This document shows positions 38,988 to 55,722 of a DNA stretch of 64,000 bases, one piece after another. Below the pieces are notes generated by a model. That model ran no database searches and had not been told where the DNA came from. It saw only the letters and a list, made by a program, of their open reading frames with translations. Made by a program: the position numbers and the translations under genes. Every line of letters starts with the position of its first letter. The stretch's first letter is position 1. The stretch comes from a virus, in the IMG/VR virus record IMGVR_UViG_3300047471_000189, positions 1 through 64,000 of that record. The stretch is one strand, 5' to 3'.

Positions 38988-39359
38988 CTAAGTGGCTGGA
39001 ACGAGTGAAGTAAGAATCCCATTAACGAGAGTGATGCTCCCGTTAGTTCCCCCGACCGTTAGCTTTGCTGTAACGATTGTCGTGCTGAGTCCAGTGGGGG
39101 CCGCTGTTTTTGGTGCGGCGGACAAGGGTGCTACCGGGGTAAGTCTGTATTGCGGAATCGAACCACCAGCGTAGTACTGACGAAGGTTGTCCGAAGTAGA
39201 CGAAACCCCCACTACAGGGAGGGGGCAGCGCAAAGTCGTGCTGAGAACCGGAGCAGCCTCCGCCGACGTTGGGGCCGACGGAAAATGCTGCGCCGACCGC
39301 ACGTAGGAACCGCCTACCGGAGAACTTGTATCAAGTCTTGAAGCTATTGAAGGCATCAC
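38988..39359 (-). CDS. Hypothetical virion-arm protein, 123 aa
   Basis: The start at 39359 overlaps the stop of the nozzle-like gene. The protein is Ser/Thr/Pro-rich with a beta-rich C-terminus (STTIVTAKLTVGGTNGSITLVNGILTSLVPA), which suggests a small structural protein. An alternative Met lies one codon downstream. No family is recognised. Confidence 0.55.
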   Translation of the reverse strand: MMPSIASRLDTSSPVGGSYVRSAQHFPSAPTSAEAAPVLSTTLRCPLPVVGVSSTSDNLRQYYAGGSIPQYRLTPVAPLSAAPKTAAPTGLSTTIVTAKLTVGGTNGSITLVNGILTSLVPAT

Positions 39360-42300
39360 TTCTCCTGATCGAACCCGCCGAATAACGACAAGCTCAACAA
39401 CTCATTTTTAACTGTGTCCGATCCCCAGTTCACCATGACCTGAAGGTGACGGCACTTGGCCGGTAGCTGGGTCTGAGATACATAGAACCGTTGGGCATAG
39501 GTGCTGACGCTGGGTTCGAGTTCTGTCGGGTCTTGAACGTACAAGGTGAGAGGTTCAAAGTAGCTGACCGAGGTTATGTTCACAGACAGTGCCTGACCTG
39601 TTCCTCCGGTAGTAGCCAGAGCCGTTCCTGTAGCTGGGTATCCTTCTCCGGGAAGGAGTAAGGAAAGTCCAGTTACTGGACCGGTGGGTCCTCCGGATAC
39701 GCTCGTAACTTTCGCAAGCCCGCCGGTTCCTCCGGGATAAACCACGGCGACTATGTCTCCGACGGTGTATCCGGCTCCAGCGTTGTTAGGAGTTATGAAA
39801 TTGATTCCGAAATACGGAGCGATTTCATCTAGCTGGATAGCAAGAGAAATTGGAGTTCCGATAGCTTTGGAGTCCGAGGTGAAGCTTTCAATCGTACCCA
39901 ACTGGCCGGGCTGCGCGATAACGATGCTGCCAAGGGTGGCCCACGCCGGGTAAGCAGAACCGTTGTCCGTAGAAACCGTGTAGTCCCTCTTCAAGATCGG
40001 GCCGCTGGTCTGTGGTCCGAGCAGAAGTTCGTGCGTACCCGGAAGAACTTCGATGGATTGTACAGCGGAGAACCCGCCAACGATCTGGGCTTTGGGGCTC
40101 CATGTTGTGCCGGTTTCGGGAGACGGTGTGGGAGTCATCCTCCACCAAACTCCGTTGAAGTCCGAAACGTATAATCCCTTATCCTGTGATCCAGCGACGT
40201 GCCAAGATATAAAAGTGCTGGACGGAGTAAAGGTTCCCGTGCCGAGGCCGGGCCCAAATTGATCGCCTATTGGAAACCCGATTTCGGATACACCCGAGCT
40301 TGGGTCCAACGTGAGGACCTGATTGTCGGATGAGTACAGGTATACGATGCTTCCGTTGACAGAAAAGGCGTCGTAGGAAACGAGCCCGATGTCTGTCAGG
40401 AACGGAGCAGAGAAGAACGCGCTTGTTGGTGTTCCTAACCCCTGAATGATGAAGATATCAGAGATCGTAAACACGAGCAGCCCGGAGGATGTTGGGAACA
40501 ACCTCGTCACCGTTTCCGGGAACGCGAATACGTTCGACGCAGACCAAGCTTCGTTTCCATTTCCGGCGGTTACATCCGGACCGGTAGAGAAGTAGACAAG
40601 GTTGTTGACTGCTCCCCAGATTCTTCCGAGGTGGTAAGTTAATGCCAGTAGTCCGGTCGGAGGGGGGTCGTTGATTCCGTCGATAGGAGCTTCGATGAGT
40701 TCATTAAGTCCGGTATCGGGAGTAGTATCCGTGTATGTCCACGTCGCTCCGCCACCGGGGTTCGGAATTTCATCTAGGAAGAAGAGGACCGATCCACCCT
40801 GTACCGTTCTCCAGATTACAATTGTGTCGATCTGTGTCGCAGAAGACCCGGCACCTTGGATAATGGCTAGGTTATCGGCACTGACGAGAATCGGAGCGCT
40901 TTCTTGACTTGCTGTCCCAATGTGCCCAGTAATGCTGTTTTTGTAACTGTAGGCATAGATCCACGCCCCAGTGTTTGCTTCTCCGAAAGGACCAGAGTTC
41001 AACCACAGTTCTGTGCTGTCCGTGGTGTAGGCACCAACAGCGGTAGCCCATGTCGGAGCCGTGGTTCCGCTTTCTCCGAGAATGGTGGTTTTCTCGACGG
41101 CGTTGTTAGAATCGAGAATAGCTGTGGCAAGACTTAGAGTCTGGGTGCTGCCGGGCCACGGGGATAAGGAAGGACCGCTCTGGTTTACCCACACCACTGT
41201 GTTGTCAATAGTGGTGGTCCCAACTCCGTTGGTCCAGTTCGGAAACGTGGTTCCGCTGGTTCCACCAATCGTGCATTGGAATAAGCAGTCTACCGTGACT
41301 GCTTGCTGAAAAGTTACAAAGACCGGGTTCCCAAACTCATCTGTCCCATTTTGTTCAGACGTGGTGATGTAGTAAGTGAAGGTAACCGCAAGTATGTCCC
41401 CGGCCACATAAGTATGACCCGTCAACCATGTCCCGGGACCGATACATGACCAAGTGACGTCCCCGTCGGCAGTAGTTCCCCCGATGATGGTGTTCCAAGT
41501 AGGAGCGGAACCGCCGGTCTGGTGAGGAGCACTTCCTGTAGAGATAAGTTTCTGGAGGTTGCTGTTCGAATCCAGAATAACGAACAACGGAGCATACCAC
41601 GTGCTGGCTCCCCACGCCGGGTAAACGGCAGGAGACGGGGCCTGTGTAACGGTAGGCGTTACAGTGGGAGTAGGTATTCCCCACGGTTCGACCTGTGATC
41701 CGAGGTTCTCCCATTGCGCCCCGCCGTCTTGAGTTATCGCATGAAGAACGGTCGACCACGTCGGTTGTGCGGCACCGGTAGTCCCGCTGCCCGTTGTGAT
41801 CTGGCCGGTCTCTGCGGCAAACGCTTGAGTCCCGCCGTTAGCAAATTGAACCTGCTGGCTATTTGAGTTTCCTGTCGAAGTCTGAGTCGTTCCATTTAAA
41901 GCAGGAACTGTAGTTAAACCAGACAGGGTGACCTTAGTTCCAACCGGAATTTCAAGAGAAGTACCGGTCCCCAAGAAAATCGTGGCTGTTCCGGAAGCGA
42001 TCTGTATGTCGGCAATGTTGCCTGTTTGGCTCCCGATGTTTAGCTGCAAATTCCCGTTGGGGTCTACGATGTACTGACCAGAGGTAAATGCCGTGTTGGC
42101 TTTCCAGATTAGTGGACTTTCTATAAGCTGGTTGGTAGACACTCCGTCCGAGAAGTAGAGAGTGTTTCCTACTCCCTGAAAGCTGGTGACCTTCGCGTCA
42201 GGGTTCTTGTTCCACAGAATCTGATTTGTGCTCGGTCCCGTTACATCTCGGACCGTGCCGCCTAATCCCGGGATAGGAGTAATAACCGCCTGCCCGGTAT

Positions 42301-42928
42301 CCGGGCTAGTGAAGAAGTTAAAGGTCCCGAACTGGAACATCGCCTGATTAGCGCCGAGAGTTATCCCAGAACCAGACGGAGGGGTTGTCGGGCCGAGGAC
42401 CTGTCCATTAAGGGCGGTGTAATTCGTCAGCCCGGAGAAGCTGTAGGTCTGACCAGAGACCGTTGCCGGTACGTTGGTCGAGAAGGTTACGATGGCAAAA
42501 TACCGGAAGATCGGCTGATGTAACGGGGTGTATCCGATAACCAGTCTGAGACTCTCCGTGGCCGTGACTAACCGGGTGCCATGCGGAGCAGCGGTTCCTT
42601 GGACATCAGCGATAACTCTGATCTGCTCTTGGTTGTTGATGACCGGGCTGAAGGCGTAGTACCGATTGATGCCGGGGAAAGTCTGGTTGTTGTAGACAGA
42701 GGTTCCCGGTCTCCGGATGAAGGTTAGCTTCGTGGAGATTTCAGAGTTGAGACCAGAAATGGCCGTGTCTGCCCGAGACCCGTAGTACTCTGCCTCGATG
42801 TGTGGGGCATTACCACGCAGCGGGTTTCTCTGGGTAACCACACCGTCGTAGAAGGTGTCGATCCAGAGAACTCCGTAGCGGGTTGGCTTAGAGGGTTGTG
42901 CCCCTTTTTTGGCAAGCTCGTTTGGCAC
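39356..42928 (-). CDS. Putative tail nozzle / tubular protein, 1190 aa
   Basis: The N-terminus (YGVLWIDTFYDGVVTQRNPLRGNAP and STKLTFIRRPGTSVYN) has the pattern seen at the start of large podovirus tail-tube B or nozzle proteins, which read an early R-x-G. The rest is beta-rich with many Gly/Thr repeats and repeated W..G.TW-like segments, fitting several beta-domains. It lies downstream of the adaptor-like protein, the order gp11-gp12 of T7. The identification is by pattern and position. The protein is larger than the usual 700-800 residues, so it may also include fibre-like domains. Confidence 0.5.
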   Translation of the reverse strand: MPNELAKKGAQPSKPTRYGVLWIDTFYDGVVTQRNPLRGNAPHIEAEYYGSRADTAISGLNSEISTKLTFIRRPGTSVYNNQTFPGINRYYAFSPVINNQEQIRVIADVQGTAAPHGTRLVTATESLRLVIGYTPLHQPIFRYFAIVTFSTNVPATVSGQTYSFSGLTNYTALNGQVLGPTTPPSGSGITLGANQAMFQFGTFNFFTSPDTGQAVITPIPGLGGTVRDVTGPSTNQILWNKNPDAKVTSFQGVGNTLYFSDGVSTNQLIESPLIWKANTAFTSGQYIVDPNGNLQLNIGSQTGNIADIQIASGTATIFLGTGTSLEIPVGTKVTLSGLTTVPALNGTTQTSTGNSNSQQVQFANGGTQAFAAETGQITTGSGTTGAAQPTWSTVLHAITQDGGAQWENLGSQVEPWGIPTPTVTPTVTQAPSPAVYPAWGASTWYAPLFVILDSNSNLQKLISTGSAPHQTGGSAPTWNTIIGGTTADGDVTWSCIGPGTWLTGHTYVAGDILAVTFTYYITTSEQNGTDEFGNPVFVTFQQAVTVDCLFQCTIGGTSGTTFPNWTNGVGTTTIDNTVVWVNQSGPSLSPWPGSTQTLSLATAILDSNNAVEKTTILGESGTTAPTWATAVGAYTTDSTELWLNSGPFGEANTGAWIYAYSYKNSITGHIGTASQESAPILVSADNLAIIQGAGSSATQIDTIVIWRTVQGGSVLFFLDEIPNPGGGATWTYTDTTPDTGLNELIEAPIDGINDPPPTGLLALTYHLGRIWGAVNNLVYFSTGPDVTAGNGNEAWSASNVFAFPETVTRLFPTSSGLLVFTISDIFIIQGLGTPTSAFFSAPFLTDIGLVSYDAFSVNGSIVYLYSSDNQVLTLDPSSGVSEIGFPIGDQFGPGLGTGTFTPSSTFISWHVAGSQDKGLYVSDFNGVWWRMTPTPSPETGTTWSPKAQIVGGFSAVQSIEVLPGTHELLLGPQTSGPILKRDYTVSTDNGSAYPAWATLGSIVIAQPGQLGTIESFTSDSKAIGTPISLAIQLDEIAPYFGINFITPNNAGAGYTVGDIVAVVYPGGTGGLAKVTSVSGGPTGPVTGLSLLLPGEGYPATGTALATTGGTGQALSVNITSVSYFEPLTLYVQDPTELEPSVSTYAQRFYVSQTQLPAKCRHLQVMVNWGSDTVKNELLSLSLFGGFDQEK

Positions 42929-42944: not shown

Positions 42945-44036
42945 TTATCCGTTGAAGGGCCCGGGTCCGTAAGGCCACGCGGCCCCGATACCTTGCCAGT
43001 TAGCTGTCCAGCTTCCGTCGATACCCATTGCTCCGCGTTCCGGAGTCATGCGAAATTCTTCCTGCTGCCGGTCGGCACCACGGACGGATTTCATGAGTTG
43101 TTCTTCCCACTCTAGGTAAGACGCCTGTGCGTCCTTGGCTCCGTTGAAAGCCTTGAGCGCGGCCCGGCAGCCCTGCCGGAAAGTAAAGAACATGCTCTGT
43201 GGGATCGGGTCCAGAGACTGCTGTAGCGTAGCCACAACAGGGGGAAGCATTTGATACCGAGGAACAATCCACCAGCAGAGGCCGTTCAGAGCCGGGACAG
43301 GGGATAGCCGGAACCCATAACCGTTGGGGTCGGCAACTGTCCAGATTACGGTGTTGTCCTGAATTCTAGTTCCCGGGGTAGATTGTGGGGGAGCGGCTGG
43401 CTCGGTAGCCCCAGAGATACCGTAAGGAGAAAATCCGGGCGGTATGATCGTGGTCCCTGTGTACCCCGGAGACTCGATAGTCAAACCCAGTTGGGTCGAG
43501 TCAAGGAACAGAATGTTTCCGTTCACGTCGATAAACTGTTGTATAGGGGTCCGAGGAGTCATCGACACACCGTACCCACTGGAGTATTCGGTGTTCGGCT
43601 GCCACTGTCCCATGATTGCAAAGTTATTCTGGATGAAGCAGATTTGGAGAGGGACGCTTTGTGCCGATACCTGCGGAATGTCTCTGACGGTTTCTACGAC
43701 GAACGTCGGCTTTGGGGCCCCATTGTTATTGGACGTAGAGTTGTTGATGTCGACCCGCCACGCATCCTCCAACCACCCTATGTCTGTGAGGTTAGTGACA
43801 TAATCCTGCTGCAAGCTGGACGTGAGAAACGGTGGAGCAACTTTCCGGTTCCACTTCCACGGCATGTTCTCATCGAGAACCCGTTGCATCACCTCGTTCA
43901 CAATGGTGAGCATCGGCTCAGTGCTGTATCCAGCAGCACCTCCGAGAACATTATAGAATTCCGGATTGGCCTTTAGCTGGTTCGCGATCTGCTGACCAGT
44001 TAAGGAGTAAGCGTGATTTCCGGGGATTAAAGGCAT
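42945..44036 (-). CDS. Tail-adaptor-like protein, 363 aa
   Basis: The protein shares a core with the 237-residue protein at 55009-55722: W-K-W-N-R, DYVTNLTDIGWLEDA, and DPIPQSM...QGCRAALKAF match its WRWNRV, DYIVNLPTFGWIEKA and NPIPDYL...GFQAKAF. Such proteins resemble the podovirus head-tail adaptor (tail tubular A). This copy has an extra beta-rich stretch of about 110 residues in the middle. It is directly upstream of the nozzle-like gene, which supports an adaptor role. Confidence 0.6.
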   Translation of the reverse strand: MPLIPGNHAYSLTGQQIANQLKANPEFYNVLGGAAGYSTEPMLTIVNEVMQRVLDENMPWKWNRKVAPPFLTSSLQQDYVTNLTDIGWLEDAWRVDINNSTSNNNGAPKPTFVVETVRDIPQVSAQSVPLQICFIQNNFAIMGQWQPNTEYSSGYGVSMTPRTPIQQFIDVNGNILFLDSTQLGLTIESPGYTGTTIIPPGFSPYGISGATEPAAPPQSTPGTRIQDNTVIWTVADPNGYGFRLSPVPALNGLCWWIVPRYQMLPPVVATLQQSLDPIPQSMFFTFRQGCRAALKAFNGAKDAQASYLEWEEQLMKSVRGADRQQEEFRMTPERGAMGIDGSWTANWQGIGAAWPYGPGPFNG

Positions 44037-44063: not shown

Positions 44064-45314
44064 TTAGTTAGAGGCCCAGCAGGTCGTCGCGAGTGCCGCT
44101 ATAGTGCGACCAGCGTCTTGTCGGCTATCAATGTTATAGGAAAAAGTGGTGGTCGTTTGTGCGCTGATGTTAATCGCAAACCCACCCCGGTTCCCGATAG
44201 TTCCTCCGCCAGACCAAGTTCCTACCTGACACCACATGTAGTAAGTAGCGGGAAGTGTAGCTCCCCATGCTTGGGTAGCTTCGCATCCTTCTCCAGCGTT
44301 TCCGTCATCGACTACCGTGCAGGAAGTGAAAGTAACTTTCCCTATAATCGTAGTGGTAGGTCCTGTAGGGTAAGTAATCGCAACAGCGGTCTGGGCAGTT
44401 GTGCGACCCTTACCGTCGGTAGTTACCTGACACACATGGGTAGCATCTCCGCACGATCCCGGTGACCCGTTCACTGTGTTGAGGGTAAGGGGCTGCACTC
44501 CTCCGCCGCTTGGAGTAGTTGCGTCTCCGCCGCCGTTGATCTGTGTGATTCCGGCAGACGCCGACCCGCAGTTAGCTGCTCCTGACACCGCGATTCCTGT
44601 AGCGAATTGTCCACCCGGGCATTGTGCCGGAGTGGTGGCTAGAGCCGTAGCGGTTGCTGCGAGAGTGGCTGTGCCTGCGTTTCCTGAAGTGTTCGCGGCG
44701 TTGTCCGGGATGTCTGCACTTACTAACCCACGGATAGCAAGAGCCGCCGACCCTCCGGATGCTGGCCCGGCCAGTACCGTGTTTGCCGCAGCGGAAGACC
44801 CGGCTAAAATATTCGTCCAAGCTCCGGGGGCGGTTTGTGCTCCGGTTCCACCTTGGAGAATAGTAGCGAAATTCTCTCCACTTATGGTAGTTCCACCGGC
44901 TGCATAATACGCAAGTTGACCGGTAGTTCCGGGGTTGATTAACCCGGTTGTGGTGCTACTGACGACACAGACATTCGGAATCACTATCCCGCCCGCGCTC
45001 GGGTAGGAGATGGTTTCCGTTACGCAGTACCCCAACGGGATGTAGTAGTCGTAGTTACCGCCTTCGTCTGCGGTCACGACGGACGGGATAATCGGGGCTG
45101 TTAATAACGGGTCCGAGTATATCGTGGCTGCCATATCGGTCGCGGTGGAGGTGACGGCAACTGTTGAGTACGGTTGAATCACAGCTTCCACCCCGGACGA
45201 CCCGCGAGCTAAGACCTGTCCGACACGGTGATACCCGATGGTAACCTGACCATCGCTGTGTGCAGCGATAGCCAAGGCCATCAGTGTGCCGGAAATTATA
45301 TGAACTAATTTCAT
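44064..45314 (-). CDS. Tail fibre/spike with signal peptide, 416 aa
   Basis: Residues 1-23 look like a Sec signal peptide (MKLVHIISGTLMALAIAAHS, then DGQ). A domain of about 95 residues follows (VTIGYHRVGQVLARGSSGVEAV...YYIPLGYCV) that is shared with the N-terminus of the 1310-residue fibre. The centre is Ala/Thr-rich with collagen-like low complexity. The C-terminal 100 residues form a beta domain with Cys residues and Trp. This fits a receptor-binding protein that shares an attachment domain with the larger fibre. Confidence 0.6.
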   Translation of the reverse strand: MKLVHIISGTLMALAIAAHSDGQVTIGYHRVGQVLARGSSGVEAVIQPYSTVAVTSTATDMAATIYSDPLLTAPIIPSVVTADEGGNYDYYIPLGYCVTETISYPSAGGIVIPNVCVVSSTTTGLINPGTTGQLAYYAAGGTTISGENFATILQGGTGAQTAPGAWTNILAGSSAAANTVLAGPASGGSAALAIRGLVSADIPDNAANTSGNAGTATLAATATALATTPAQCPGGQFATGIAVSGAANCGSASAGITQINGGGDATTPSGGGVQPLTLNTVNGSPGSCGDATHVCQVTTDGKGRTTAQTAVAITYPTGPTTTIIGKVTFTSCTVVDDGNAGEGCEATQAWGATLPATYYMWCQVGTWSGGGTIGNRGGFAINISAQTTTTFSYNIDSRQDAGRTIAALATTCWASN

Positions 45315-45323
45315 CCTAACTCC

Positions 45324-48300
45324 TTATCGCAAAACCGAACCTTTGAAGTGTCCACCGTGTCCCTTAGAACCGTGGGTTGTCGGGTTCGTCACAGTGAGTC
45401 CAGTTGAACCGGATACACTTGACGAGGTAGCCATGATCGTCGTGCTACCTGCCAGAACGCCTGTGGCTAATCCCCCTGCCGAGATCGTGGCGATGCTTGT
45501 GAAGGTGCTGGACCACGTAACAGTTGATGTGCAATTTGTTGTGGTCGAATCGGACCAGTGGCAAGTTGCGGTGTACTGCTTCGTCGACCCCACAACAACC
45601 GAGGTACCGGCTGGGGTCACGACGATGCTGGTTAGGGTCGGCGGGATATTGATCGTATACAACGAACTTCCCACAGAGCTATTCGTAAACCCTGACGCAG
45701 AGGCTATCGCCTTGACTGTCTGGGTCGTCGAGACGGTGAGAGGGGAAGAGTAGACCGTCGATCCTGTTGTTGGGGTCGATCCGTTGGTTGTGTAATAAAT
45801 GGTAGATGCAGGCGTGGTATCGGAGAGCGCCACTGTCTGGGTAGACGTGTACGTTCCGGCGTTCGGGCTGGTCACTGGCGTAGCGACAACCGGAGCGTTG
45901 ATTGTATAGGCTGCGCTGCCTGCGGTGGAATCTTGGAATCCTGTTCCGCCAGCGACAGCATACAGAGTTTCACTGGCCGCAACGGAAACAGGTGCGGTGT
46001 ATTTGGTACCGGTTGTACAGCCGGTTGCTCCATCAGTTGCCGGAGACCCGGTCGTGTTGTAGCAGATTACAGATCCCGACGTAGTCGAGATCGTTACCGT
46101 CTGTGTTCCGGTGTAGGTTCCCGCAACAGGAGAGAAGGTTGGGGTAACTGCTATTGGGGCCGTGGAGGCCGTGAAAGACGCCTGATCGAGATTGATAAAA
46201 TACGTCTGTGAACCGCTTGGCGTATTCGCGTCCATCTGAAACTGGAAGCCGTTACCCGACGTCCACCCCATTGGAAGCACGCCTGAGTTCGTCGTGATCC
46301 CGAGGTTATGCACGGTCCCGTTCAAAACGAACGTGTCGTACACCTGACTATTTCCTACCCTGTGATCGGTAGTTGTGATGTGGTTCCACCCTATTAACGG
46401 TGCCTGCGTCACACCTGAGTCAATCCACTGTATTGTGGCCTGATCCCATGCGTCCCACGAATTATGGCCACCCGGACATCCTGCGCCGTTGTAGCAGTAC
46501 TGCCAGCCGAACATGTACTCCCGATTCAAACCGACCGAGAACAGGAAGGCAGTGTCTAACTCCAAGGCACCAAGATTCGAAGTGGAAGGAAGATATACTT
46601 CAAAATCGGATGCAAAGTTTGTGCAAAGGTCGCAAACTGGAGCGAGCCAGTAGAATAGAACATTGGTGTCTGGTTGGTTTGCGACCATACTCATTTGCAT
46701 GGACGACCCAGACAAGGAGGGTGAAGCGTTTCTGATAGTCTGATTGGTTGAGACGGGGATTCCTGTTCCCCCGGGATCGCATCCCGGTTTGATGCAGGTG
46801 TTCCAGCCAGTAAGTGAATTCCACAAGCCGGGCAAGTTAATCGTGTAAGCGGCACTTCCGACAGAGCTAGTCACAAACCCGGCTGCGGTAGCGATAGCCT
46901 TCACTGTGGTGTTGGAATTCAGGGTGATTGCTCCCGAATAGACAGTTGACCCGGTCGTGGGGGTTGAGCCGTCCAGAGTGTAGTAGATTGTCGAGCTTGG
47001 GGTTGTATCAGAGATTGTTACTGTCTGAATGCTCGTGTAGGTTCCAGCAGTCGGGGAGAAGGTCGGAGTTGCAACAGTCGGAGTGGAGTTATCTACTGCT
47101 CCAATGATGCCTCCGGTCGAACTGGTCACTACTGTGGATCTGGCCGTAGCGTAGTGCGTGTTCGCGTTGAATTGAAAACGCACCGGCATGTTCGCCGCAC
47201 CACCGCTCAGCCCAGTACCGCTCTGCGGGGAAACCGGCACATAAGTTCCCGTGGTAAATGGCTGGCTTGCGGTCGATATGAAGTTGCCCGAGGATAACCC
47301 TGTTATGTGATTATTGATTGGCGTGACTGAGGTAAAGAGGGGAAGATCACTCCTTGTGCTTTCCCACCCGCTGTTCAGATTGCAGGCGCTTGATGGAGAG
47401 ATCGGCGTCGTGATATTCATCAAAGAGCCAGCCGCAACGACGTTGGTTGTGAAATCACTAACGAACGTCTCAGTACTATTCCAGCAGGCGCTTGTTCCCG
47501 GTGTTTGCCAGATAATATTATTCTGCGCCATGACGCGGGGGTACTCGAAGGGAGTCCCGCCGCCATTGTCGTTCGTGTCCAGAATCCCCGAACCAAGAAA
47601 CGTGCCGGTGAAGCTCAATGTGTTGTTGTAGAAGTAGAGATTGCCGGGACGTGCTGCTCCGTAGGGACCGTGATCGCCTATAAAGTGGACCCCGAAAAGA
47701 GCGGTTGAGTTCTGGATGATGTTGCCATAGATATGATAGGTGTGAAACTGATCGTACCAAGCGGTCATCAGGTCCATCGTCATGATGTTGCCCTGCGCCC
47801 ATCCATTAGGGATGTAGTTGTACGCTCCCATATATTGCGGGGAATCTTGGTTATCTACGGCATCGATCACTCGCTGCGGACTGTTCGGGGTTCCTCCGGC
47901 ACCATCGCCAAAATAGTTGTACCGAACGATTGTCCCTACGCCTCGATCCTTTAGATTGATTCCTCCAGAGTTGAAAAGCATCTTGTCGATGACGTTGAAT
48001 TGGACAAGCTGCAACCAGCCTTGCAGGTAGAACTGATGGATGCTTCCGTTGCCGCTGACGCCGGTTCCGTGGACGTGGTTACCTTCATAATCGGTGTTCT
48101 GAACCAGCGCCCAGCCGTTATTGGTATTGAAGTCGGAGAAGATTCCAAAGTCGCTGTTTGAAACATCGTTCCCACGGATGACCGTATCCATACTGGGCCA
48201 CACGCGAAGCCCGGATGTTGCCAGCGCCCAATTCGCTACCGTCCCACCCGGGGCCGTGTGACTCACAGAGGATGAGGCATTCTTGATCGCCAATCCTTCA

Positions 48301-50276
48301 AGGATCAAATACTGCGGTCCTGTCCACGGTCCGGGAGCATAGTTGCCCCACCAGTTTGTTGAGTAATTTCCGCCAACCGATACCGCCGCATATTGCTCAA
48401 TTGTGTAAGCAAAGGATGTGCTGATGGCTGGAGTAGCGTTTTGGCCGTCAATGACCGGAAGGTTTCCCGCAGAATCAGGAACACCGCAAACACGAATTGG
48501 CTGTGTTCTGGTTCCGGTTCCGCTGAACGGGAAGTATTCGTGATAGGTGGTCGGACTCGACCCGCTTAAATCTTCATTGTGAATGCGGACTGTAGAACCG
48601 GCGGTGAGCGCGGTCCACGGAACGGACGTAATAGTATGATAAGTCGCTTGCGTCGGTCCTACGTCATAGACAGTTCCTGTTGAACTTGGGTCGGCGGTGC
48701 AGTCCACCGGCATTGTCTGCGAGGGTGTTACCGGATACGGGAGAGCGTGGCCTGTAACATAAAGAGTAGCCGTCTGAGTCTTGGTTCCGTCAGCCACACT
48801 CGTCGCCAATACCGTATAGCGACCAGCAACCGTAGCGGAGAACACCGTATCTCTGTTTGTAATATCGCTGAGAATACCGTCCCCTCCCCCCGGCTGCGAA
48901 GTGATTGCCCAAGTCACGGCTTGGTTACTATTACCGAGAACCCATGTCTGTAAGTCGACTTTTTGGTTAGCGTACAGGGCTTCATAGAACGGGGTTACAA
49001 TTACCTGAGTGCTTGGCTGACACACATCGATTGGAAAATCTACAGTCTTGCTTGTATCGTCCACGCTCTGTGCCCTGATCGTCACAATGGCAGTAGAGGT
49101 TGCCGTATAGGTGACGTTGCCGCTGCCAGAGCCGGGAGATACGGAACAGGTTCCCGGCGTCGAGCCAACGGTGACATCCACCCACGGAAAGGTATTTGCC
49201 GTAGCGGACAATGTGGCGGAGGCTCCGCCTGTTGTCGAGGCTACACTCCAGTTCACCTTATTGGTCGTTCCGTTGGTGATCGTCGCGTAGATACGCCGCA
49301 CATCACCCGGAAGAACCTGCCAGCCATATTGGGATTGGTTCGCAGTGATAGCAACGGCTGGGGGAGGGGTTCCCTGCGTATACGACCACGAGTTAATAAG
49401 CACCGCACCGGCATTGCCTGCCGAGACGGTAGAAGCAGTGATGCCTGCGAGGGCTGTATTACTTCCGCCTACGATGGACGGGATGTTGACTCCTGTCCAA
49501 GTATGGGTAAAGCAGGAAGGTCCCGGACATGTCCCGCCAGCCGTCACGTCGAACAGGTTCTCAATAAGATTCGATCCGTCATAGGTGATCGTTACCGAGT
49601 AGACGTGGCCGGTGGTTGTGTTGAACTGAGTAGCTGGGGAGTTCAGCGGAACGGGATTAGTAACAAAGCTAGCGTAAGACCGATAACCGGGGTCGCCATC
49701 ATTTGGGTGGCATGGATCATAGCCAGACGTATAGAGGTTAGTCGTGCTGTAGGTAAATCCGTTGGCAAAGGGACCGTTGGCAACCGGGTCCACGTTGTTG
49801 AACCCGTCCATCGTTATGGCAAAGACGTTGTTCAGGTAAGTACCGGATAGGGTCACGTTCGGAGCCTGATAGAACCCGCCTTCGCAGCCAGCGCCGTTGA
49901 AGAACCCGATCCCCTGATAGCCGGGTTGATTGTTGGTGTTCTGGAGCACGAAGGCCAGCGTATTACCGCTGGGAATGAAGGTGTAGGTTGTCGAGAATGC
50001 CTGCACGTTGACCGGGGTCGTGAAGTTGGCAGACATTGCAGTGTGAGAACTATGCGCGGGTGCTAACTGCACTTGGCCTGAGCCGGTAATGCTGGTGGTG
50101 GTAGTACTGTTGAGCTTGAAGTTGTTCGCGCCCAGCGTGTTGTTGCTGCCTGATGCCCCGCAGGTGCCAGCACCTGAATTGAACGCGGAACAGTTAAAGA
50201 TAGTCTGTCCGTGGCTATGAGCAGCGATTGCTAAAGCAAGAAGGCCGCCAGAAAGAATGCGAATGATTTTCATCAT
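45324..50276 (-). CDS. Multidomain adhesin-like tail protein, 1650 aa
   Basis: After a signal-peptide-like start (MKIIRILSGGLLALAIAAHSH), rough domains are: an L-type lectin-like beta sandwich (25-310), an Ig-like part (320-520), a right-handed beta-helix (about 530-1010) with repeated N-x-I/V-G turns, a chitobiase/hexosaminidase C-terminal-like repeat (near 1085-1165, TPTFSPTAGTYTS...STIYYTLDGSTP), a concanavalin-like domain (1170-1370), two more copies of that repeat (1380-1540) and a bacterial Ig-like BIG2 domain (1545-1640). It is a strong candidate for carbohydrate recognition or degradation. The signal peptide is odd for a tail protein. Confidence 0.7.
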   Translation of the reverse strand: MMKIIRILSGGLLALAIAAHSHGQTIFNCSAFNSGAGTCGASGSNNTLGANNFKLNSTTTTSITGSGQVQLAPAHSSHTAMSANFTTPVNVQAFSTTYTFIPSGNTLAFVLQNTNNQPGYQGIGFFNGAGCEGGFYQAPNVTLSGTYLNNVFAITMDGFNNVDPVANGPFANGFTYSTTNLYTSGYDPCHPNDGDPGYRSYASFVTNPVPLNSPATQFNTTTGHVYSVTITYDGSNLIENLFDVTAGGTCPGPSCFTHTWTGVNIPSIVGGSNTALAGITASTVSAGNAGAVLINSWSYTQGTPPPAVAITANQSQYGWQVLPGDVRRIYATITNGTTNKVNWSVASTTGGASATLSATANTFPWVDVTVGSTPGTCSVSPGSGSGNVTYTATSTAIVTIRAQSVDDTSKTVDFPIDVCQPSTQVIVTPFYEALYANQKVDLQTWVLGNSNQAVTWAITSQPGGGDGILSDITNRDTVFSATVAGRYTVLATSVADGTKTQTATLYVTGHALPYPVTPSQTMPVDCTADPSSTGTVYDVGPTQATYHTITSVPWTALTAGSTVRIHNEDLSGSSPTTYHEYFPFSGTGTRTQPIRVCGVPDSAGNLPVIDGQNATPAISTSFAYTIEQYAAVSVGGNYSTNWWGNYAPGPWTGPQYLILEGLAIKNASSSVSHTAPGGTVANWALATSGLRVWPSMDTVIRGNDVSNSDFGIFSDFNTNNGWALVQNTDYEGNHVHGTGVSGNGSIHQFYLQGWLQLVQFNVIDKMLFNSGGINLKDRGVGTIVRYNYFGDGAGGTPNSPQRVIDAVDNQDSPQYMGAYNYIPNGWAQGNIMTMDLMTAWYDQFHTYHIYGNIIQNSTALFGVHFIGDHGPYGAARPGNLYFYNNTLSFTGTFLGSGILDTNDNGGGTPFEYPRVMAQNNIIWQTPGTSACWNSTETFVSDFTTNVVAAGSLMNITTPISPSSACNLNSGWESTRSDLPLFTSVTPINNHITGLSSGNFISTASQPFTTGTYVPVSPQSGTGLSGGAANMPVRFQFNANTHYATARSTVVTSSTGGIIGAVDNSTPTVATPTFSPTAGTYTSIQTVTISDTTPSSTIYYTLDGSTPTTGSTVYSGAITLNSNTTVKAIATAAGFVTSSVGSAAYTINLPGLWNSLTGWNTCIKPGCDPGGTGIPVSTNQTIRNASPSLSGSSMQMSMVANQPDTNVLFYWLAPVCDLCTNFASDFEVYLPSTSNLGALELDTAFLFSVGLNREYMFGWQYCYNGAGCPGGHNSWDAWDQATIQWIDSGVTQAPLIGWNHITTTDHRVGNSQVYDTFVLNGTVHNLGITTNSGVLPMGWTSGNGFQFQMDANTPSGSQTYFINLDQASFTASTAPIAVTPTFSPVAGTYTGTQTVTISTTSGSVICYNTTGSPATDGATGCTTGTKYTAPVSVAASETLYAVAGGTGFQDSTAGSAAYTINAPVVATPVTSPNAGTYTSTQTVALSDTTPASTIYYTTNGSTPTTGSTVYSSPLTVSTTQTVKAIASASGFTNSSVGSSLYTINIPPTLTSIVVTPAGTSVVVGSTKQYTATCHWSDSTTTNCTSTVTWSSTFTSIATISAGGLATGVLAGSTTIMATSSSVSGSTGLTVTNPTTHGSKGHGGHFKGSVLR

Positions 50277-50280
50277 GCTC

Positions 50281-51075
50281 CTAAGAGATTCCGTACTTGG
50301 TTCGGAAGTACGCTTCGTTCTGTTGTACCTGTGGGAGGGTGAGGGCCGACTGGTAGACGATCAACTCCACAAATTTGCCAGCAAATAAGGCAGTACCAGT
50401 AGCGTTACCATCTCCGCCAATAACAGTAGGGCCACCAATTAGACCGCCACCGGCAGCGGACGTACTAACATCCACCGCACTTGCCATTCGAAAGTTAGTA
50501 GAAGTGCTCTGTATCCATGTAACGTTGGTCTGCGTAAACGTGTTTGCTGTGGCATGAGTCACACCTACGGCTACTAGATGGTCATCTTGTCCGGAATAAC
50601 TATTGAAATTGAGATCTGTTGCCTCACCGAATGCCGGACCCAAATAGCCGGAGCCAATCACATACCCCGATGAGGTACTAGGTGGAATGCTAAAGACAAA
50701 GAATACTGTCTGCTGACTTATACAGCACCCGCTCGGAGGAACTGTAAAAGCCAACGCCCCCCAGCAACTACTAAAGGTGACGGCTGGCAGGCCGTTCACT
50801 TGGTTGGTGTTGAATGTGCAAGTGCCGTGATTCAGGGTGGCATCGTTGGCGTTGCCGCTTCTATCAGCCCAAGCAGTGATGTTAGTACCGTTGCTCGGGG
50901 TCCCGCATACGCTGCTGGGATATGTGATGCAATCAGAAGATAACCATAGAGCCATCCCGGCCACTGGGCCTGAAGCGGCAGCGGTAACCGTGCGGTGATT
51001 TCCGGTACTGATAACCTGCCCGCCGTTGGCAGCGAGCAGAGGAATAAGAGCGAGGAGCACTAGTAATTTCTTCAT
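50281..51075 (-). CDS. LamG/concanavalin-like lectin protein, 264 aa
   Basis: I chose the ATG at 51075, where a TAATG overlaps the stop of the upstream fibre, over an earlier start inside that gene. The N-terminus is a signal-peptide-like MKKLLVLLALIPLLAANG. The rest matches a LamG/concanavalin A-like jelly roll (ALWLSSDC... AWADRSGNANDAT... LPAVTFSSC... VFFVFSIPP... FVELIVYQSALTLPQVQQNEAYFRTKYG). It probably binds a surface polysaccharide as part of the tail cassette. Confidence 0.65.
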   Translation of the reverse strand: MKKLLVLLALIPLLAANGGQVISTGNHRTVTAAASGPVAGMALWLSSDCITYPSSVCGTPSNGTNITAWADRSGNANDATLNHGTCTFNTNQVNGLPAVTFSSCWGALAFTVPPSGCCISQQTVFFVFSIPPSTSSGYVIGSGYLGPAFGEATDLNFNSYSGQDDHLVAVGVTHATANTFTQTNVTWIQSTSTNFRMASAVDVSTSAAGGGLIGGPTVIGGDGNATGTALFAGKFVELIVYQSALTLPQVQQNEAYFRTKYGIS

Positions 51076-54000
51076 TAGTATGTTCCCTGAACAACCCAAG
51101 TTGCTTGCTTCGAGGTTCCGTCTGCGACGAAAGTAAATTTGATATAATCTCCATTCGTCAACGCTACATTTCCGCTCTGTGACGCTGTAGCGAATGAACT
51201 TGTACAAGTTACTGCGCCCGTCAGAAGTGCCCCAAGCGTGTTCCCTGCCGCGTTCATCGTCGAGGTTCCAGAGTTGTCGGTGAAGCATTGCAGACCAGTG
51301 AGTGTAACCGTCGACCCGGTTGTGTTCTTACAGGTCGACTGGAGATAGGTTCCCGCTGTGATTGCGTTCAAGCCGTCACCAAGACCCGGCTGGCAAGACC
51401 ATTGACGTGTTCCGCCCACTACAGCCGCATCGACATAAGCTGTCGTCGCAACCTTAGTGGAGTTATCCGCCGGAGATTGAGTCGTTGCCGTCGTTCCGTT
51501 AGGGATTGCGTTTGTGCCGCTAACAGCAGTCCCGGTTCCAGCGTAATAAGCTATCTGGTTTGCTGTTCCGCTATTGACGGTACCGCTTCCACCTCCGCCT
51601 GTGCATCCGATATTCGTCAAGCCACCGTGAGTTCCGTTAAAACAGGCAGGGTTTGGGCTTGCGGAGGTCGCAATACTCGGGATCGTAAACTCGCCGCTAG
51701 CATAAGCTCGAAACACATCGGTAGACCCACCATACGGACGAACCATATAGTAGTTGTTGGTAGACGTCGAACTCGTGTAATTGAAGCCGTGACAGAAGGC
51801 GTTGTTGTTTCCTGTATCCCGCCCAAGGCAATCCCCGAACCAGTCACCAGATGCTAGGGTAGAATTCCACTCTCGGATTAGCGTTGGTGGTCCGCCTGTT
51901 GTTGAATGCGAGTAAATGTCCATGCCAAGGAACCCGCCCGCGTTCGCTTGCCACGCCATGAAATTAAACCAGTTGGAATCGAACCATAATCTCGCAGCCG
52001 GAGCGTATACGCTCTGAACATCGGCACCGAGGCCGCTTGCTGAATACGAGAAGGTATCCGCAGGTTGGATCGGTAGCCCTCCCTTAGCAGCGAAAGCTTC
52101 GTTAACCGTTTGCGCCCAAATTACATCTGCATGGGGGTCCGGTAGCGATGGGGTGTTATCTGCGACATGCAGTAGAGCCCTAGCCGTGTCCGCGTAATAG
52201 TCGATGTACTGACCGTTCGACACCATCGTCGCGTTCTTGCCCATGTACTGGGTCCACATGAAGTAGTTCACTTGACCGGGCTTAACGTCTGCTCCGGTGA
52301 GGCCGTACTGGGCAGGAACGATGGTCGTTTCTAACACCTTCATTCCAGCCGTATGAGCCGCAGCCCAGAGTGTCTGCTTGTCGGCCTCTACTTGAGTTGA
52401 GCTTCTTCCGCCAAGAAAGTCGTTCTGGCCGGTCTGATCGATCAGGAACATGGGTGACGCGCTGATGCTGGCAACCCAAGTTGCCAGATTTGCTGCGGCA
52501 GCCTGAGTGGTTGTTTCAAACCCGTAGATAGTCCCGTGACCGTAAATATAAGATTGCTTTCCAAACTGCCATATACCCCACAACGATGCGTCGTAGGTAG
52601 TGCCGGTGCAAGGGGAGCAAGTGTAGGTTAAAGTGGTCGGGGTCGTGAAAGTAATCTGTGTTGACGAAGGGACGGTGGTGACTTGGAAAGATCCATACTG
52701 GGCAGCCTGCTGAACTGATCCGATGATACCGGCGGGCCAACTAGCCAAATTGGACATATCGACTGCATCCCCTATGGACAGACTATGTGCAGAACCGTAG
52801 GTGACGGTGCAGGTTGAAGTGGAGGTATGAACGCAACTTACGCTGGACGGAACACCAAGCGAACGACTGTTCTGTGCGTTTGCATCGTCGTAAAGCCCAG
52901 AGAATGACGTAACCACATAAGCCGTTGTAATCGGGTTGTACTGAACTCCGCTTGATCCTCCTGCGGTGGTAAGATCGATGTCATTTGTGGTTGTGCTGAC
53001 CGTGACGCTTGCGTCAGATGAATGAATTGTGACTGCTGGTCCGGTCTGGGAATTGATGCTTGTAATGCCGCCTCCGCCTCCTCCACCAAACGGGGCTTCT
53101 GCTACTCCGTTTTCTGAGTGAACGAGTTGGTGCGTAACCGCATCGCAGCGGATGTAATCGACCCCAGCAGCCGGAACTCCGGCAGTAGAGGATTCATCAC
53201 AAGAAAATCCGTGGGCCCCTGAAGGGAGAGCGGCGTCTGCGGCTGGCGATACCGTGCCTGCTGTTAGAGAAGGCGCTGTGACAGCTTCAGAACACGCAAC
53301 GGTTGTGCCGTTGTCGGTGCAGGCCGAAGCGGCGTGGCTCCCTGCCGTAGACCCAACCATCTGCATCTGACCAGCGGTCCCGACCGTGGGACTACCGCTT
53401 CCTCCACTCCCGTACGGCACCCAAGCGGTTCCATTACTCTGGCAAAGATGAGATGTGGACCCGGTGCCTGCTGCGCAATCCAAGGCGTCAACGGCGTTAT
53501 CGACGGCGATAATTGCGTACGGCCATGAGGTAGCGGGAGGAAGTTCCTGAATCCATCTTGACTGCAATCCCTTGCCCCAGAAGTTCGCGTTCGGATCAAT
53601 CGAAAGCCCCTCGGTCGCGCTATATAAGAGCGGGACATTGACCGGAATGAAGCCGGGAGATGAAACAGGAGATCCTGTGTAATAGAGGAACAACCTCACG
53701 CCATTAACGGTGGTATCGCTTGCTCCCCTGAAGTCGCCTGACATGGCAATCGATGTGAGAACCTGTGTTGTATCGACGTTGGCTCCTGTCAGACTGACCA
53801 GTTGGCCGGTGGCCGGTACGGATTCAAACTCTTCTGAGGAGATGGGGAATAAACTTCCGCCCGTTGCTCCGGTGGCCGTTGCCGTTGCGCTGAAAGCCGC
53901 GACGTTATAGGTAGACGCGCTTAAACAGCCATCAGCTACGGGCAAGATACCGTGATTGGCACCAACCGCAGCAGCATAAACCGCCGTGATTCTACCGGGA

Positions 54001-55007
54001 GAGGCTGCTAGATCGGGATACTGGGCTTCGAGCGCCCCCGTAAAGGTCCATGTCGCGGTACCGCTAGAGCCGAAGGAGCAATACGACCCAGATGCCATAT
54101 CCGCAGAAGTCAAGTCACCCGTCACGGTGACAGCGGGAGCATCAGTCTTCGAGAATCCTGTCGGGGTAAGAATGACGTACTGACCGGAAATAGGGGGCTG
54201 GATGAACTGTCCTATCCCGCTGGTAACATCTACGTCGGCAGTTTCAATTCCTCCGCTGGGGTTTCGGAACCGAACGGTGGGGCTGTCCTGAAAATCAAGT
54301 AAAACCTGACTGGTGTTGTCAATCTCGTCCGTCTGTAAGTTCACACTTGGGTTGGCCGAGATGACCCCAGCAACGCAATTCGTGGTCGTGCCGTCACACT
54401 GCGCGGCTCCCTTGGACGAATTGGTCGCATTGGGAACAGTCGCTGATTCGATTCCCCCACTGGGGTTCGTGAACTTAACCGTAGCCGTATCTTTGAAGTT
54501 GAGGATGGTTTGTAGAGCGTTATCGACATCGTTGGTTTGAATCTCTGCGCCGGTAGTGTTAGAAAACGTACAAGTGTTTCCTGTGCAACTTACATTTGCC
54601 CCAGTGAAAGTAAACGGACCGGAAACAGAGTTTATGCTGGAAACGATAGCTCCTCCGGCTCCGGCCAGAGAGCATATGTTAATAGTCGTAAAGTTCCCTG
54701 ATCCCGGGTATTGGACACGCTCGTTTACGCAGTATCCCAAGGGCATGTAATACGAGAAGTTACCGCTGGAGTCAGCCGTCACCATTCCCGTGGGGATCGG
54801 AATAGTCAGAAGAGGGTCCCGGTAGATGGTAGCCAACGCACCGGTAGCCGTCGACGTAACATAGATGTTCGCGTTGGGGACAACTACAGCCTCTGTCCCG
54901 GACGAACCACGGGCCACGACTTGGTTTACCCGGTGAAACCCGATGGTCACTTGTCCGAATAATGGACCAGCTATAAGAAGAAGTGCGGATAGAAGAAATT
55001 TCTTCAC
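51075..55007 (-). CDS. Tail fibre with SGNH-hydrolase-like domain, 1310 aa
   Basis: A signal-peptide-like N-terminus (MKKFLLSALLLIAGPLFGQ) leads into the shared domain VTIGFHRVNQVVARGSSGTEAV. Two Asn/Ser-rich repeats with ETDxDNxxQ and DxQDS-like segments follow. A central region (about 820-990) has an SGNH/GDSL-like pattern: LIDQTGQNDFLGGR near 860 (GxND block III) and DPHADVIW near 955 (block V Asp-x-x-His-like). The C-terminal part has collagen-like and beta domains. It may deacylate host surface polymer. A 15-bp element lies in the signal-peptide codons. Confidence 0.62.
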   Translation of the reverse strand: MKKFLLSALLLIAGPLFGQVTIGFHRVNQVVARGSSGTEAVVVPNANIYVTSTATGALATIYRDPLLTIPIPTGMVTADSSGNFSYYMPLGYCVNERVQYPGSGNFTTINICSLAGAGGAIVSSINSVSGPFTFTGANVSCTGNTCTFSNTTGAEIQTNDVDNALQTILNFKDTATVKFTNPSGGIESATVPNATNSSKGAAQCDGTTTNCVAGVISANPSVNLQTDEIDNTSQVLLDFQDSPTVRFRNPSGGIETADVDVTSGIGQFIQPPISGQYVILTPTGFSKTDAPAVTVTGDLTSADMASGSYCSFGSSGTATWTFTGALEAQYPDLAASPGRITAVYAAAVGANHGILPVADGCLSASTYNVAAFSATATATGATGGSLFPISSEEFESVPATGQLVSLTGANVDTTQVLTSIAMSGDFRGASDTTVNGVRLFLYYTGSPVSSPGFIPVNVPLLYSATEGLSIDPNANFWGKGLQSRWIQELPPATSWPYAIIAVDNAVDALDCAAGTGSTSHLCQSNGTAWVPYGSGGSGSPTVGTAGQMQMVGSTAGSHAASACTDNGTTVACSEAVTAPSLTAGTVSPAADAALPSGAHGFSCDESSTAGVPAAGVDYIRCDAVTHQLVHSENGVAEAPFGGGGGGGITSINSQTGPAVTIHSSDASVTVSTTTNDIDLTTAGGSSGVQYNPITTAYVVTSFSGLYDDANAQNSRSLGVPSSVSCVHTSTSTCTVTYGSAHSLSIGDAVDMSNLASWPAGIIGSVQQAAQYGSFQVTTVPSSTQITFTTPTTLTYTCSPCTGTTYDASLWGIWQFGKQSYIYGHGTIYGFETTTQAAAANLATWVASISASPMFLIDQTGQNDFLGGRSSTQVEADKQTLWAAAHTAGMKVLETTIVPAQYGLTGADVKPGQVNYFMWTQYMGKNATMVSNGQYIDYYADTARALLHVADNTPSLPDPHADVIWAQTVNEAFAAKGGLPIQPADTFSYSASGLGADVQSVYAPAARLWFDSNWFNFMAWQANAGGFLGMDIYSHSTTGGPPTLIREWNSTLASGDWFGDCLGRDTGNNNAFCHGFNYTSSTSTNNYYMVRPYGGSTDVFRAYASGEFTIPSIATSASPNPACFNGTHGGLTNIGCTGGGGSGTVNSGTANQIAYYAGTGTAVSGTNAIPNGTTATTQSPADNSTKVATTAYVDAAVVGGTRQWSCQPGLGDGLNAITAGTYLQSTCKNTTGSTVTLTGLQCFTDNSGTSTMNAAGNTLGALLTGAVTCTSSFATASQSGNVALTNGDYIKFTFVADGTSKQATWVVQGTY
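54953..54967 (+). repeat. 15-bp element copy 20 (exact)
   Basis: GTCCGAATAATGGAC falls inside the signal-peptide codons of the large fibre, read there as Gly-Pro-Leu-Phe-Gly-Gln. Confidence 0.75.
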
Positions 55008-55008
55008 G

Positions 55009-55722
55009 TTAACCTCTGCCTCCCTGAATGGCGGCTAGTTGTCGGAGAGAATTCAGTTTGTCGGCGAGCCAAACATTCTTTTGGGACTGGCTCAAGCCCT
55101 GAGATTCCGTTGCCAAATCAGTCATGAATATCTGCATTGATGTCGTAAACCGGGGGTCGTTGCTGTACTCGAACGCTTTCGCTTGGAACCCCTCGTTATA
55201 CAGGTAGCTTAGATAATCCGGAATCGGGTTCCATGTCTGGTTAAGAGCAGTGAACAACGGAGCCGACTTCTGATAATCAACCACAACGTTGTAAATTTTG
55301 TCCGGAGCGGGAAAAACCCGGAAGGTTATGTTCCCCGAGTCGTCATCGTATTGGGCTGAAATTCTGGCTGGTTGATTGGGTAGGGGTTCTTCGCCTTTGA
55401 TTAACTCGACCTGTAACTCAAACGCAGCAAACCCGTCCCCGGGGAGGTAGGCCACAGCCTTCTCAATCCAACCAAACGTAGGCAGGTTGACGATGTAATC
55501 CGAAACCCCGATGTCGGTCGTAAACGTAGGAGTAGACGGTGTGGCCCCCACGCGGTTCCATCTCCACCCGCCTAAAGCAGGAGACAAGATCGTCTGCATC
55601 ACCCAGTCGGCGTTGGAAAACGCCGGGTCGTTCGCAGTATTAGCCGTGAACGTCAAGGGGGCGAGACGCTGGTATTGCTGGGCCAAGTTAATGGTCCGCT
55701 GTAACTGGATTGTGCTTGCCAT
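55009..55722 (-). CDS. Tail-adaptor-like protein, 237 aa
   Basis: This is the smaller member of the pair with 42945-44036. Shared landmarks are WRWNR, DYIVNLPTFGWIEKA and WNPIPDYLSYLYNEGFQAKAFEYSNDPRF. A beta-rich middle (QYDDDSGNITFRVFPAPDKIYNVVVDYQ) fits a tail tubular A-type protein. It lies immediately before the fibre cassette. Having two adaptor-like proteins is unusual and may reflect an ancient duplication split by fibre genes. Confidence 0.58.
   Translation of the reverse strand: MASTIQLQRTINLAQQYQRLAPLTFTANTANDPAFSNADWVMQTILSPALGGWRWNRVGATPSTPTFTTDIGVSDYIVNLPTFGWIEKAVAYLPGDGFAAFELQVELIKGEEPLPNQPARISAQYDDDSGNITFRVFPAPDKIYNVVVDYQKSAPLFTALNQTWNPIPDYLSYLYNEGFQAKAFEYSNDPRFTTSMQIFMTDLATESQGLSQSQKNVWLADKLNSLRQLAAIQGGRG

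What the first reader, a model, noticed from the sequence alone, without database searches (positions are those of the whole stretch)
44064..55007. Four consecutive tail-type genes that all begin with Sec signal peptides
Tail fibres are normally assembled in the cytoplasm and lack signal peptides, yet all four proteins in this cassette (1310, 264, 1650 and 416 residues) start with basic-hydrophobic-cleavage-like segments ending in HSHGQ, HSDGQ, GPLFGQ or similar. Either the genes came from host surface adhesins, or the proteins are exported to the cell surface during infection, or the hydrophobic ends serve in assembly.
Basis: partly seen in the sequence, partly recalled or inferred. Interest (0 to 1): 0.7.

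Follow-up and report, generated by a model that had tools for sequence, protein, structure and literature searches.

The report
Phage tail fibres with export signals
A family of soil viruses that most likely infect Acidobacteriota puts a secretion tag on every one of its tail-fibre-type genes, and cysteine counts suggest the tag is cut off and the fibres fold with disulfide bonds outside the cytoplasm, unlike any tailed-phage fibre I could find described.

Summary
All four genes (1310, 264, 1650, 416 aa) start with Sec/SPI-type signal peptides ending G|Q; a fifth lies outside the window. They fill the fibre slot of an SU10-like phage whose nearest cultured relative (portal, capsid, adaptors, 1190-aa protein) is the Acidobacteriota phage Tunturi_3. 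Related contigs and the plaque-forming isolate Tunturi_1 carry the same kind of cassette (114 SP proteins; +1 residue Q in about half to two thirds); T7, SU10, crAss001, phi38:1 and Tunturi_3 do not. Independent evidence for export and cleavage: mature SP proteins hold an even number of cysteines (84/97, p=7e-14; other ORFs 104/236), and where the signal peptide itself has an odd count, the mature part is even in 36/43. Other virion proteins of this phage are nearly cysteine-free. In 10 of 19 cases the gene after a conserved fibre-knob gene has the mature N-terminus Q-x-G-x-HR, as if cleavage exposes a docking peptide. Best reading: receptor-binding fibres/depolymerases exported by host Sec, processed, disulfide-bonded, then joined to virions at or after lysis. 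Export is well supported; virion attachment is inferred. No paper found describes this.

The parts
51075..55007 (-). 1310-aa fibre-type protein; signal peptide 54954-55007 (VKKFLLSALLLIAGPLFG|Q); 26 Cys
   Evidence: contains DNSTKVATTAYVDAAV-type fibre motif; C-terminal domain shared with other SP fibres
51078..51407 (-). 110-aa C-terminal knob domain of the 1310-aa protein, four invariant Cys
   Evidence: AF2 model pLDDT 86.5; Foldseek matches viral fibre and tail proteins, TMq up to 0.72
50281..51075 (-). 264-aa protein; signal peptide 51019-51075 (MKKLLVLLALIPLLAANGG|Q); 6 Cys; C-terminal part matches virion structural PHROG 10356 and weakly Laminin_G_3
50992..51018 (-). mature N-terminal motif QVISTGNHR of the 264-aa protein (proposed docking peptide exposed by cleavage)
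   Evidence: motif in 10 of 19 genes directly downstream of a knob-domain fibre (9 by strict pattern plus L013) vs 2 of 95 other SP proteins, p=6.5e-7 for the strict count
45324..50276 (-). 1650-aa protein; signal peptide 50208-50276 (MMKIIRILSGGLLALAIAAHSHG|Q); three CHB_HEX_C_1/Fn3_assoc and one Big_2 domain; 22 Cys
   Evidence: C-terminal region 44% identical over 179 aa to Tunturi_1 gp17, also SP-bearing
44064..45314 (-). 416-aa fibre-type protein; signal peptide 45249-45314 (MKLVHIISGTLMALAIAAHSDG|Q); N-terminal domain 59% identical to that of the 1310-aa protein; 10 Cys
55009..55722 (-). SU10-type head-tail adaptor flanking the cassette upstream (homologue of Tunturi_3 gp13), no signal peptide, 0 Cys
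42945..44036 (-). adaptor-like protein flanking the cassette downstream (homologue of Tunturi_3 gp12), no signal peptide
39356..42928 (-). 1190-aa structural protein (homologue of Tunturi_3 gp19), no signal peptide, 4 Cys; used to fetch backbone relatives

Best explanation
The cassette encodes the receptor-binding tail fibres/tailspikes (some with enzymatic, polysaccharide-acting domains) of an SU10-like podovirus, most likely of Acidobacteriota. Unlike ordinary tail fibres they are made as precursors, exported through the host Sec system, cut by the host signal peptidase to expose an N-terminal Gln, and folded with disulfide bonds in the periplasm. The processed N-terminus (in one family Q-x-G-x-HR) then serves as a docking end, and the fibres join the particle at or after lysis, outside the cytoplasm. 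Strongly supported by sequence: signal peptides, retention under domain shuffling, pairing of cysteines in the mature part only, location in the fibre slot. Inferred: presence in the virion, docking role of the motif, timing and place of assembly.
For: Four of four genes plus one outside the window have SPs. Nearly every homologue of the 1310-aa C-terminal domain in other viral contigs has an SP, even when the rest is unrelated or absent (L009, 143 aa: SP fused straight to the domain). 114 SP ORFs in the non-duplicate set of related contigs, Tunturi_1 and this contig; +1 Q in 61 (Q-agnostic scoring) against 3.7% Q in the mature parts; in an alignment of 54 SP proteins with mostly unrelated mature parts the +1 Gln column is at least 90% conserved. 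Even Cys count in mature SP proteins 84/97, cluster representatives 58/70 (p=2e-8), without the shared knob domain 56/66 (p=7e-9), other ORFs 59/123 at equal length cut; SPs with odd Cys: mature even 36/43, full length even 7/43. Backbone relatives found independently repeat it. This phage's other virion proteins are almost Cys-free (3286 aa: 0; portal 1; capsid 0) while the SP proteins have 26, 6, 22, 10, 6. Same synteny as Tunturi_3, whose fibres lack SPs; the isolate Tunturi_1, same host, carries an SP cassette in place of any other large fibre gene in the region read. Fibre identity.
Against: No proteomics was found for any of these virions. SP calls come from a home-made rule. Tunturi_3 infects the same host with SP-less fibres, so export is not obligatory. 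The N-terminal domain of the 1310/416-aa proteins shows no detectable homology to SP-less fibre anchors of backbone relatives, and another SP-fibre N-terminal domain only a weak match, so virion attachment is not shown by homology. The host of this contig is inferred from its nearest relatives only.
Confidence: 0.63

Rival explanations
1. The proteins are exported but never become part of the virion: secreted or surface-held depolymerases, receptor blockers or superinfection-exclusion proteins made during infection (compare lambda Lom, an SP-bearing outer-membrane protein encoded between tail genes).
For: Export evidence fits equally; enzymatic and carbohydrate-type domains occur (GDSL, GH18, CBM5/12, beta-helix); Lom precedent (PMC12309495); Porphyromonas phages encode Q-rule proteins of unknown function (PMC10367356).
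Against: They sit in the fibre slot between head-tail adaptors and the 1190-aa structural gene, where Tunturi_3 has SP-less fibres; they carry fibre motifs, Gp53-like_C and fibre-knob folds; no other large fibre-type gene was found in this contig or in the Tunturi_1 region read. No tyrosine integrase was found in this contig or Tunturi_1, which speaks against lysogenic conversion.
Confidence: 0.25
2. The hydrophobic N-termini are not removed; they serve as membrane or assembly anchors in the virion or injection apparatus.
Against: n-h-c architecture with Q at +1 as in host exported proteins; cysteine parity holds only when the signal peptide is left out (36/43 vs 7/43); the conserved Q-x-G-x-HR motif starts at the predicted mature N-terminus.
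Confidence: 0.07
3. Captured host adhesin genes or a mis-assembled contig.
For: CHB_HEX_C_1 domain of the 1650-aa protein matches a protein on an Acidisarcina plasmid (37%).
Against: The same kind of cassette occurs in dozens of independent viral contigs and in the plaque-forming isolate Tunturi_1; the only bacterial-genome match to the knob domain lies in one Patescibacteria MAG contig; only a module is shared with host proteins.
Confidence: 0.03

Closest known systems
Tunturiibacter phage Tunturi_3 (PP885686), podovirus with an SU10-type portal relative
   Same: Portal 34%, capsid 39%, adaptors 30-31%, gp19 44% identity; same order with the fibre block between adaptor and gp19
   Different: Its fibres gp14-gp18 have no signal peptide and mostly 0-1 cysteines (gp18: 7)
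Tunturiibacter phages Tunturi_1 and Tunturi_2 (PP887698, PP885685)
   Same: Tunturi_1: SP cassette gp12, gp13, gp14, gp16, gp17 after the adaptor; gp17 C-terminal region 44% identical to the 1650-aa protein. Tunturi_2 carries the gp12 and gp14 genes at 99-100% identity
   Different: No detectable similarity in the other backbone proteins compared; annotated as tail spike, tail fibre, pectin lyase or hypothetical; the paper's main text (PMC11924767) does not mention signal peptides or mass spectrometry
Bacteroidetes Q-rule (PMC5837995, PMC10653852)
   Same: Gln at +1 of signal peptidase I substrates, exposed by cleavage
   Different: Described as Bacteroidetes-specific; here in phages linked to Acidobacteriota and in Terriglobia plasmid-encoded proteins; pyroglutamate not tested
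Q-rule genes in Porphyromonas phages (PMC10367356)
   Same: Phage-encoded Sec substrates with Gln at +1
   Different: Genes of unknown function, thought to modify the host surface; not described as tail fibres
Ordinary tail fibres (T7 gp17, SU10, crAss001, phi38:1)
   Same: Place in the structural operon and fibre-type domains
   Different: No signal peptide

Membership tests
Sec / signal peptidase I substrate | Basic n-region, hydrophobic h-region, small residues at -1 (and -3) | tested here: met
   (own rule, not SignalP)
Sec / signal peptidase I substrate | Signal peptide is removed in the cell | tested here: inconclusive
Q-rule substrate | Gln at +1 | tested here: met
   4/4 here if cleavage is at G|Q; 61/114 Q-agnostic, 78/114 A|Q, G|Q or S|Q with Q-aware scoring
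Q-rule substrate | Cyclised to pyroglutamate | not testable with these tools
   needs mass spectrometry
Tail fibre / tailspike | Encoded in the structural operon at the fibre position | tested here: met
   synteny with Tunturi_3
Tail fibre / tailspike | Fibre-type domains or fold | tested here: met
   Foldseek matches of the knob to viral fibre proteins; Gp53-like_C and tail-fibre PHROGs in members of the SP set; the 1310- and 416-aa proteins themselves hit no Pfam or PHROG family
Tail fibre / tailspike | Present in the virion and binds the host | not testable with these tools
   no proteomics found
SU10-like phage | SU10 portal and adaptor | tested here: met
   PF23899 E=1.4e-23; adaptor family match is below its curated cut-off
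Lambda Lom-like surface protein | Outer-membrane beta-barrel | not tested
   no barrel predictor available; domain content is fibre-like instead

The most novel reading that the evidence does not exclude
A class of tailed phages completes its virions outside the cytoplasm: receptor-binding fibres are Sec-exported, matured to an N-terminal (pyro)Gln docking end, disulfide-bonded in the periplasm, and attached to heads released at lysis. A periplasmic tail-fibre assembly route, gained or lost within one phage family.
Probability: 0.5. Interest if true: 0.92.

Novelty: new variant of a known kind. Interest (0 to 1): 0.8.

Why it matters
As generally taught, tailed dsDNA phages build virions wholly in the cytoplasm. 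Fibres that cross the inner membrane first would open a new assembly route, explain how disulfide-rich, robust fibres are made for soil conditions, and warn that secreted 'auxiliary' carbohydrate-active enzymes in soil viruses may be fibres. It also suggests that a Gln(+1) rule holds in Terriglobia. A cultured pair on one host (Tunturi_1 with, Tunturi_3 without signal peptides) makes the question directly testable.

Tried and rejected
Host-adhesin capture (only modules are shared). Chance hydrophobic starts (shuffles 0.3-2.4%; control phages). Uncleaved anchors (parity). Lysogenic conversion (no tyrosine integrase here or in Tunturi_1; 3 of 24 contigs have one). Homology between SP-fibre N-terminal domains and SP-less anchors: none for one group, weak for another. 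Full-length 1310-aa search in phages and PDB: no match. AF2 of the 264-aa protein failed (pLDDT 36.8). Genome scan with the knob domain gave one Patescibacteria MAG contig only. Acidobacteriota genomes could not be reached with the genome search, so host signal peptides were sampled from Granulicella and Acidisarcina plasmids. T7-type portal search gave nothing anywhere, including controls.

Full report
Observation. The window is 64 kb of a 78,229-bp viral contig. The four genes exist as stated, all on the minus strand, contiguous (1310 and 264 aa overlap as TAATG); the 1650- and 416-aa genes have AGGAG-type ribosome-binding sites. Each starts with a basic n-region, a hydrophobic core and a G|Q end. 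With a rule-based detector, no other listed ORF of the contig starts with such a segment except a fifth fibre-like gene outside the window (one likely transmembrane ORF if internal starts are allowed). Shuffled N-termini pass at 0.3-2.4%. I had no SignalP, so these are rule-based calls.

What phage this is. The contig has an SU10-type portal and an SU10-type adaptor match below its cut-off. Its nearest cultured relative by portal and terminase is Tunturiibacter phage Tunturi_3, a podovirus of an Acidobacteriota host (PMC11924767). Direct comparison gives portal 34%, capsid 39%, two adaptors 30-31%, and the 1190-aa protein 44% identity. In Tunturi_3 the block between adaptor gp13 and gp19 holds fibres gp14-gp18, none with a signal peptide. 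In the window the gp13 homologue is followed by the four SP genes, then the gp12 and gp19 homologues. An Acidobacteriota host for this contig is therefore likely, but inferred.

The trait is clade-wide. The C-terminal 110-aa domain of the 1310-aa protein was found in 29 viral loci. Nearly every homologue with a readable start carries a signal peptide, although the middles are unrelated; in L009 the signal peptide is fused straight to the domain. Across these contigs, Tunturi_1 and this contig I counted 123 SP ORFs (114 after removing duplicate contigs), clustered in cassettes. The residue after the cut is Gln in 61 of 114 with scoring blind to Gln, against 3.7% Gln in mature parts. When 54 of these mostly unrelated proteins are aligned, the +1 Gln is one of only five columns conserved at 90% or more. 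The plaque-forming isolate Tunturi_1, on the same host strain as Tunturi_3, has an SP cassette (gp12, gp13, gp14, gp16, gp17) after its adaptor-like gp11. Its paper mentions neither signal peptides nor mass spectrometry in the main text. A second, independent collection made with the 1190-aa protein shows a polymorphic slot: SP genes in L049, L057, L058, L061, no SP fibres in L054, L056, L059, L060, L063 and others. T7, SU10, crAss001 and phi38:1 fibres have none.

Independent evidence for export and cleavage. Proteins that fold in an oxidising compartment tend to have all cysteines paired. Mature SP proteins have an even cysteine count in 84 of 97 (p=7e-14), cluster representatives 58 of 70 (p=2e-8), and 56 of 66 when proteins with the shared knob domain are left out, against 104 of 236 in other ORFs. 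The sharpest test: 43 signal peptides contain an odd number of cysteines; the mature part is even in 36, the full-length protein in only 7. The independent set repeats this: all six SP proteins counted are even after cleavage, three of them odd before it. In this contig the SP proteins have 26, 6, 22, 10 and 6 cysteines, while the 3286-aa protein, capsid, upstream adaptor and 558-aa protein have none and the portal one. The knob domain has four cysteine columns, conserved in every row that covers them.

Host match. Annotated exported proteins on Granulicella and Acidisarcina plasmids also favour Gln at +1 (13 of 23 with Gln-blind scoring, 16 of 23 otherwise). The phage signal peptides thus look like host ones. 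The published Q-rule is stated to be Bacteroidetes-specific (PMC5837995).

Are they tail fibres? For: position; the DNSTKVATTAYVDAAV-type motif; Gp53-like_C above its cut-off in L008:15532-16401; several tail-fibre PHROGs in the SP set; a beta-rich knob model (pLDDT 86.5) whose viral matches include tail fibre and minor tail proteins; no other large fibre-type gene seen in this contig or in the Tunturi_1 region read. Against: no proteomics, and no firm homology between SP-fibre and SP-less-fibre N-terminal domains.

A possible docking end. In 9 of 19 loci (10 with L013, GNDHRKIF) the gene directly after a knob-domain fibre has a mature N-terminus Q-x-G-x-HR; only 2 of 95 other SP proteins have it, both in this window (p=6.5e-7). 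The rest of these proteins is variable. The motif starts at the predicted cut, so I propose that cleavage exposes a peptide that docks on the neighbour, perhaps on the knob domain. This is inference.

Mechanism. Supported by sequence: precursor with signal peptide, removal, paired cysteines. Inferred: export by host Sec, (pyro)Gln formation, periplasmic folding, attachment to particles at or after lysis. The main rival is export without virion attachment (secreted depolymerase or receptor blocker, as lambda Lom is a surface protein encoded among tail genes, PMC12309495). Virion proteomics of Tunturi_1 would decide.

Novelty. Full-text searches of the held open-access library found no description of signal peptides on tail fibres of tailed phages; the nearest are Q-rule genes of unknown function in Porphyromonas phages and one or two signal peptides per genome in Bacteroides phages (PMC5723332). 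Subscription journals and preprints were not searched, so novelty is provisional.

Noticed in passing
L037, L042, L043, L044 (Granulicella and Acidisarcina plasmids): Exported proteins of Terriglobia mostly carry Gln at +1 of the signal peptide, although the Q-rule is published as Bacteroidetes-specific.
   Followed up: partly
61835-63160: TROVE/Ro60-like RNA-binding protein with a vWA domain encoded by the phage.
   Followed up: no
25523-35383: A 3286-aa protein without a single cysteine, with DUF7178 and an endolysin-PHROG match; probably a giant ejection protein.
   Followed up: no
L036: The knob-domain gene in a contig of a Patescibacteria MAG, perhaps a phage contig binned by mistake.
   Followed up: no
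L025:13069-15780: A 903-aa SP protein of the cassette whose leader ends in a lipobox (LSG|C), so it may be a lipoprotein variant.
   Followed up: no
44064-45314 and 45324-50276: The two signal peptides share 16 of 23 residues, with 9 synonymous codon differences, before unrelated mature parts; suggests shuffling and selection on the leader.
   Followed up: partly
L022 and L034: Knob-domain gene split over both ends of one contig, so that contig may be circular.
   Followed up: no
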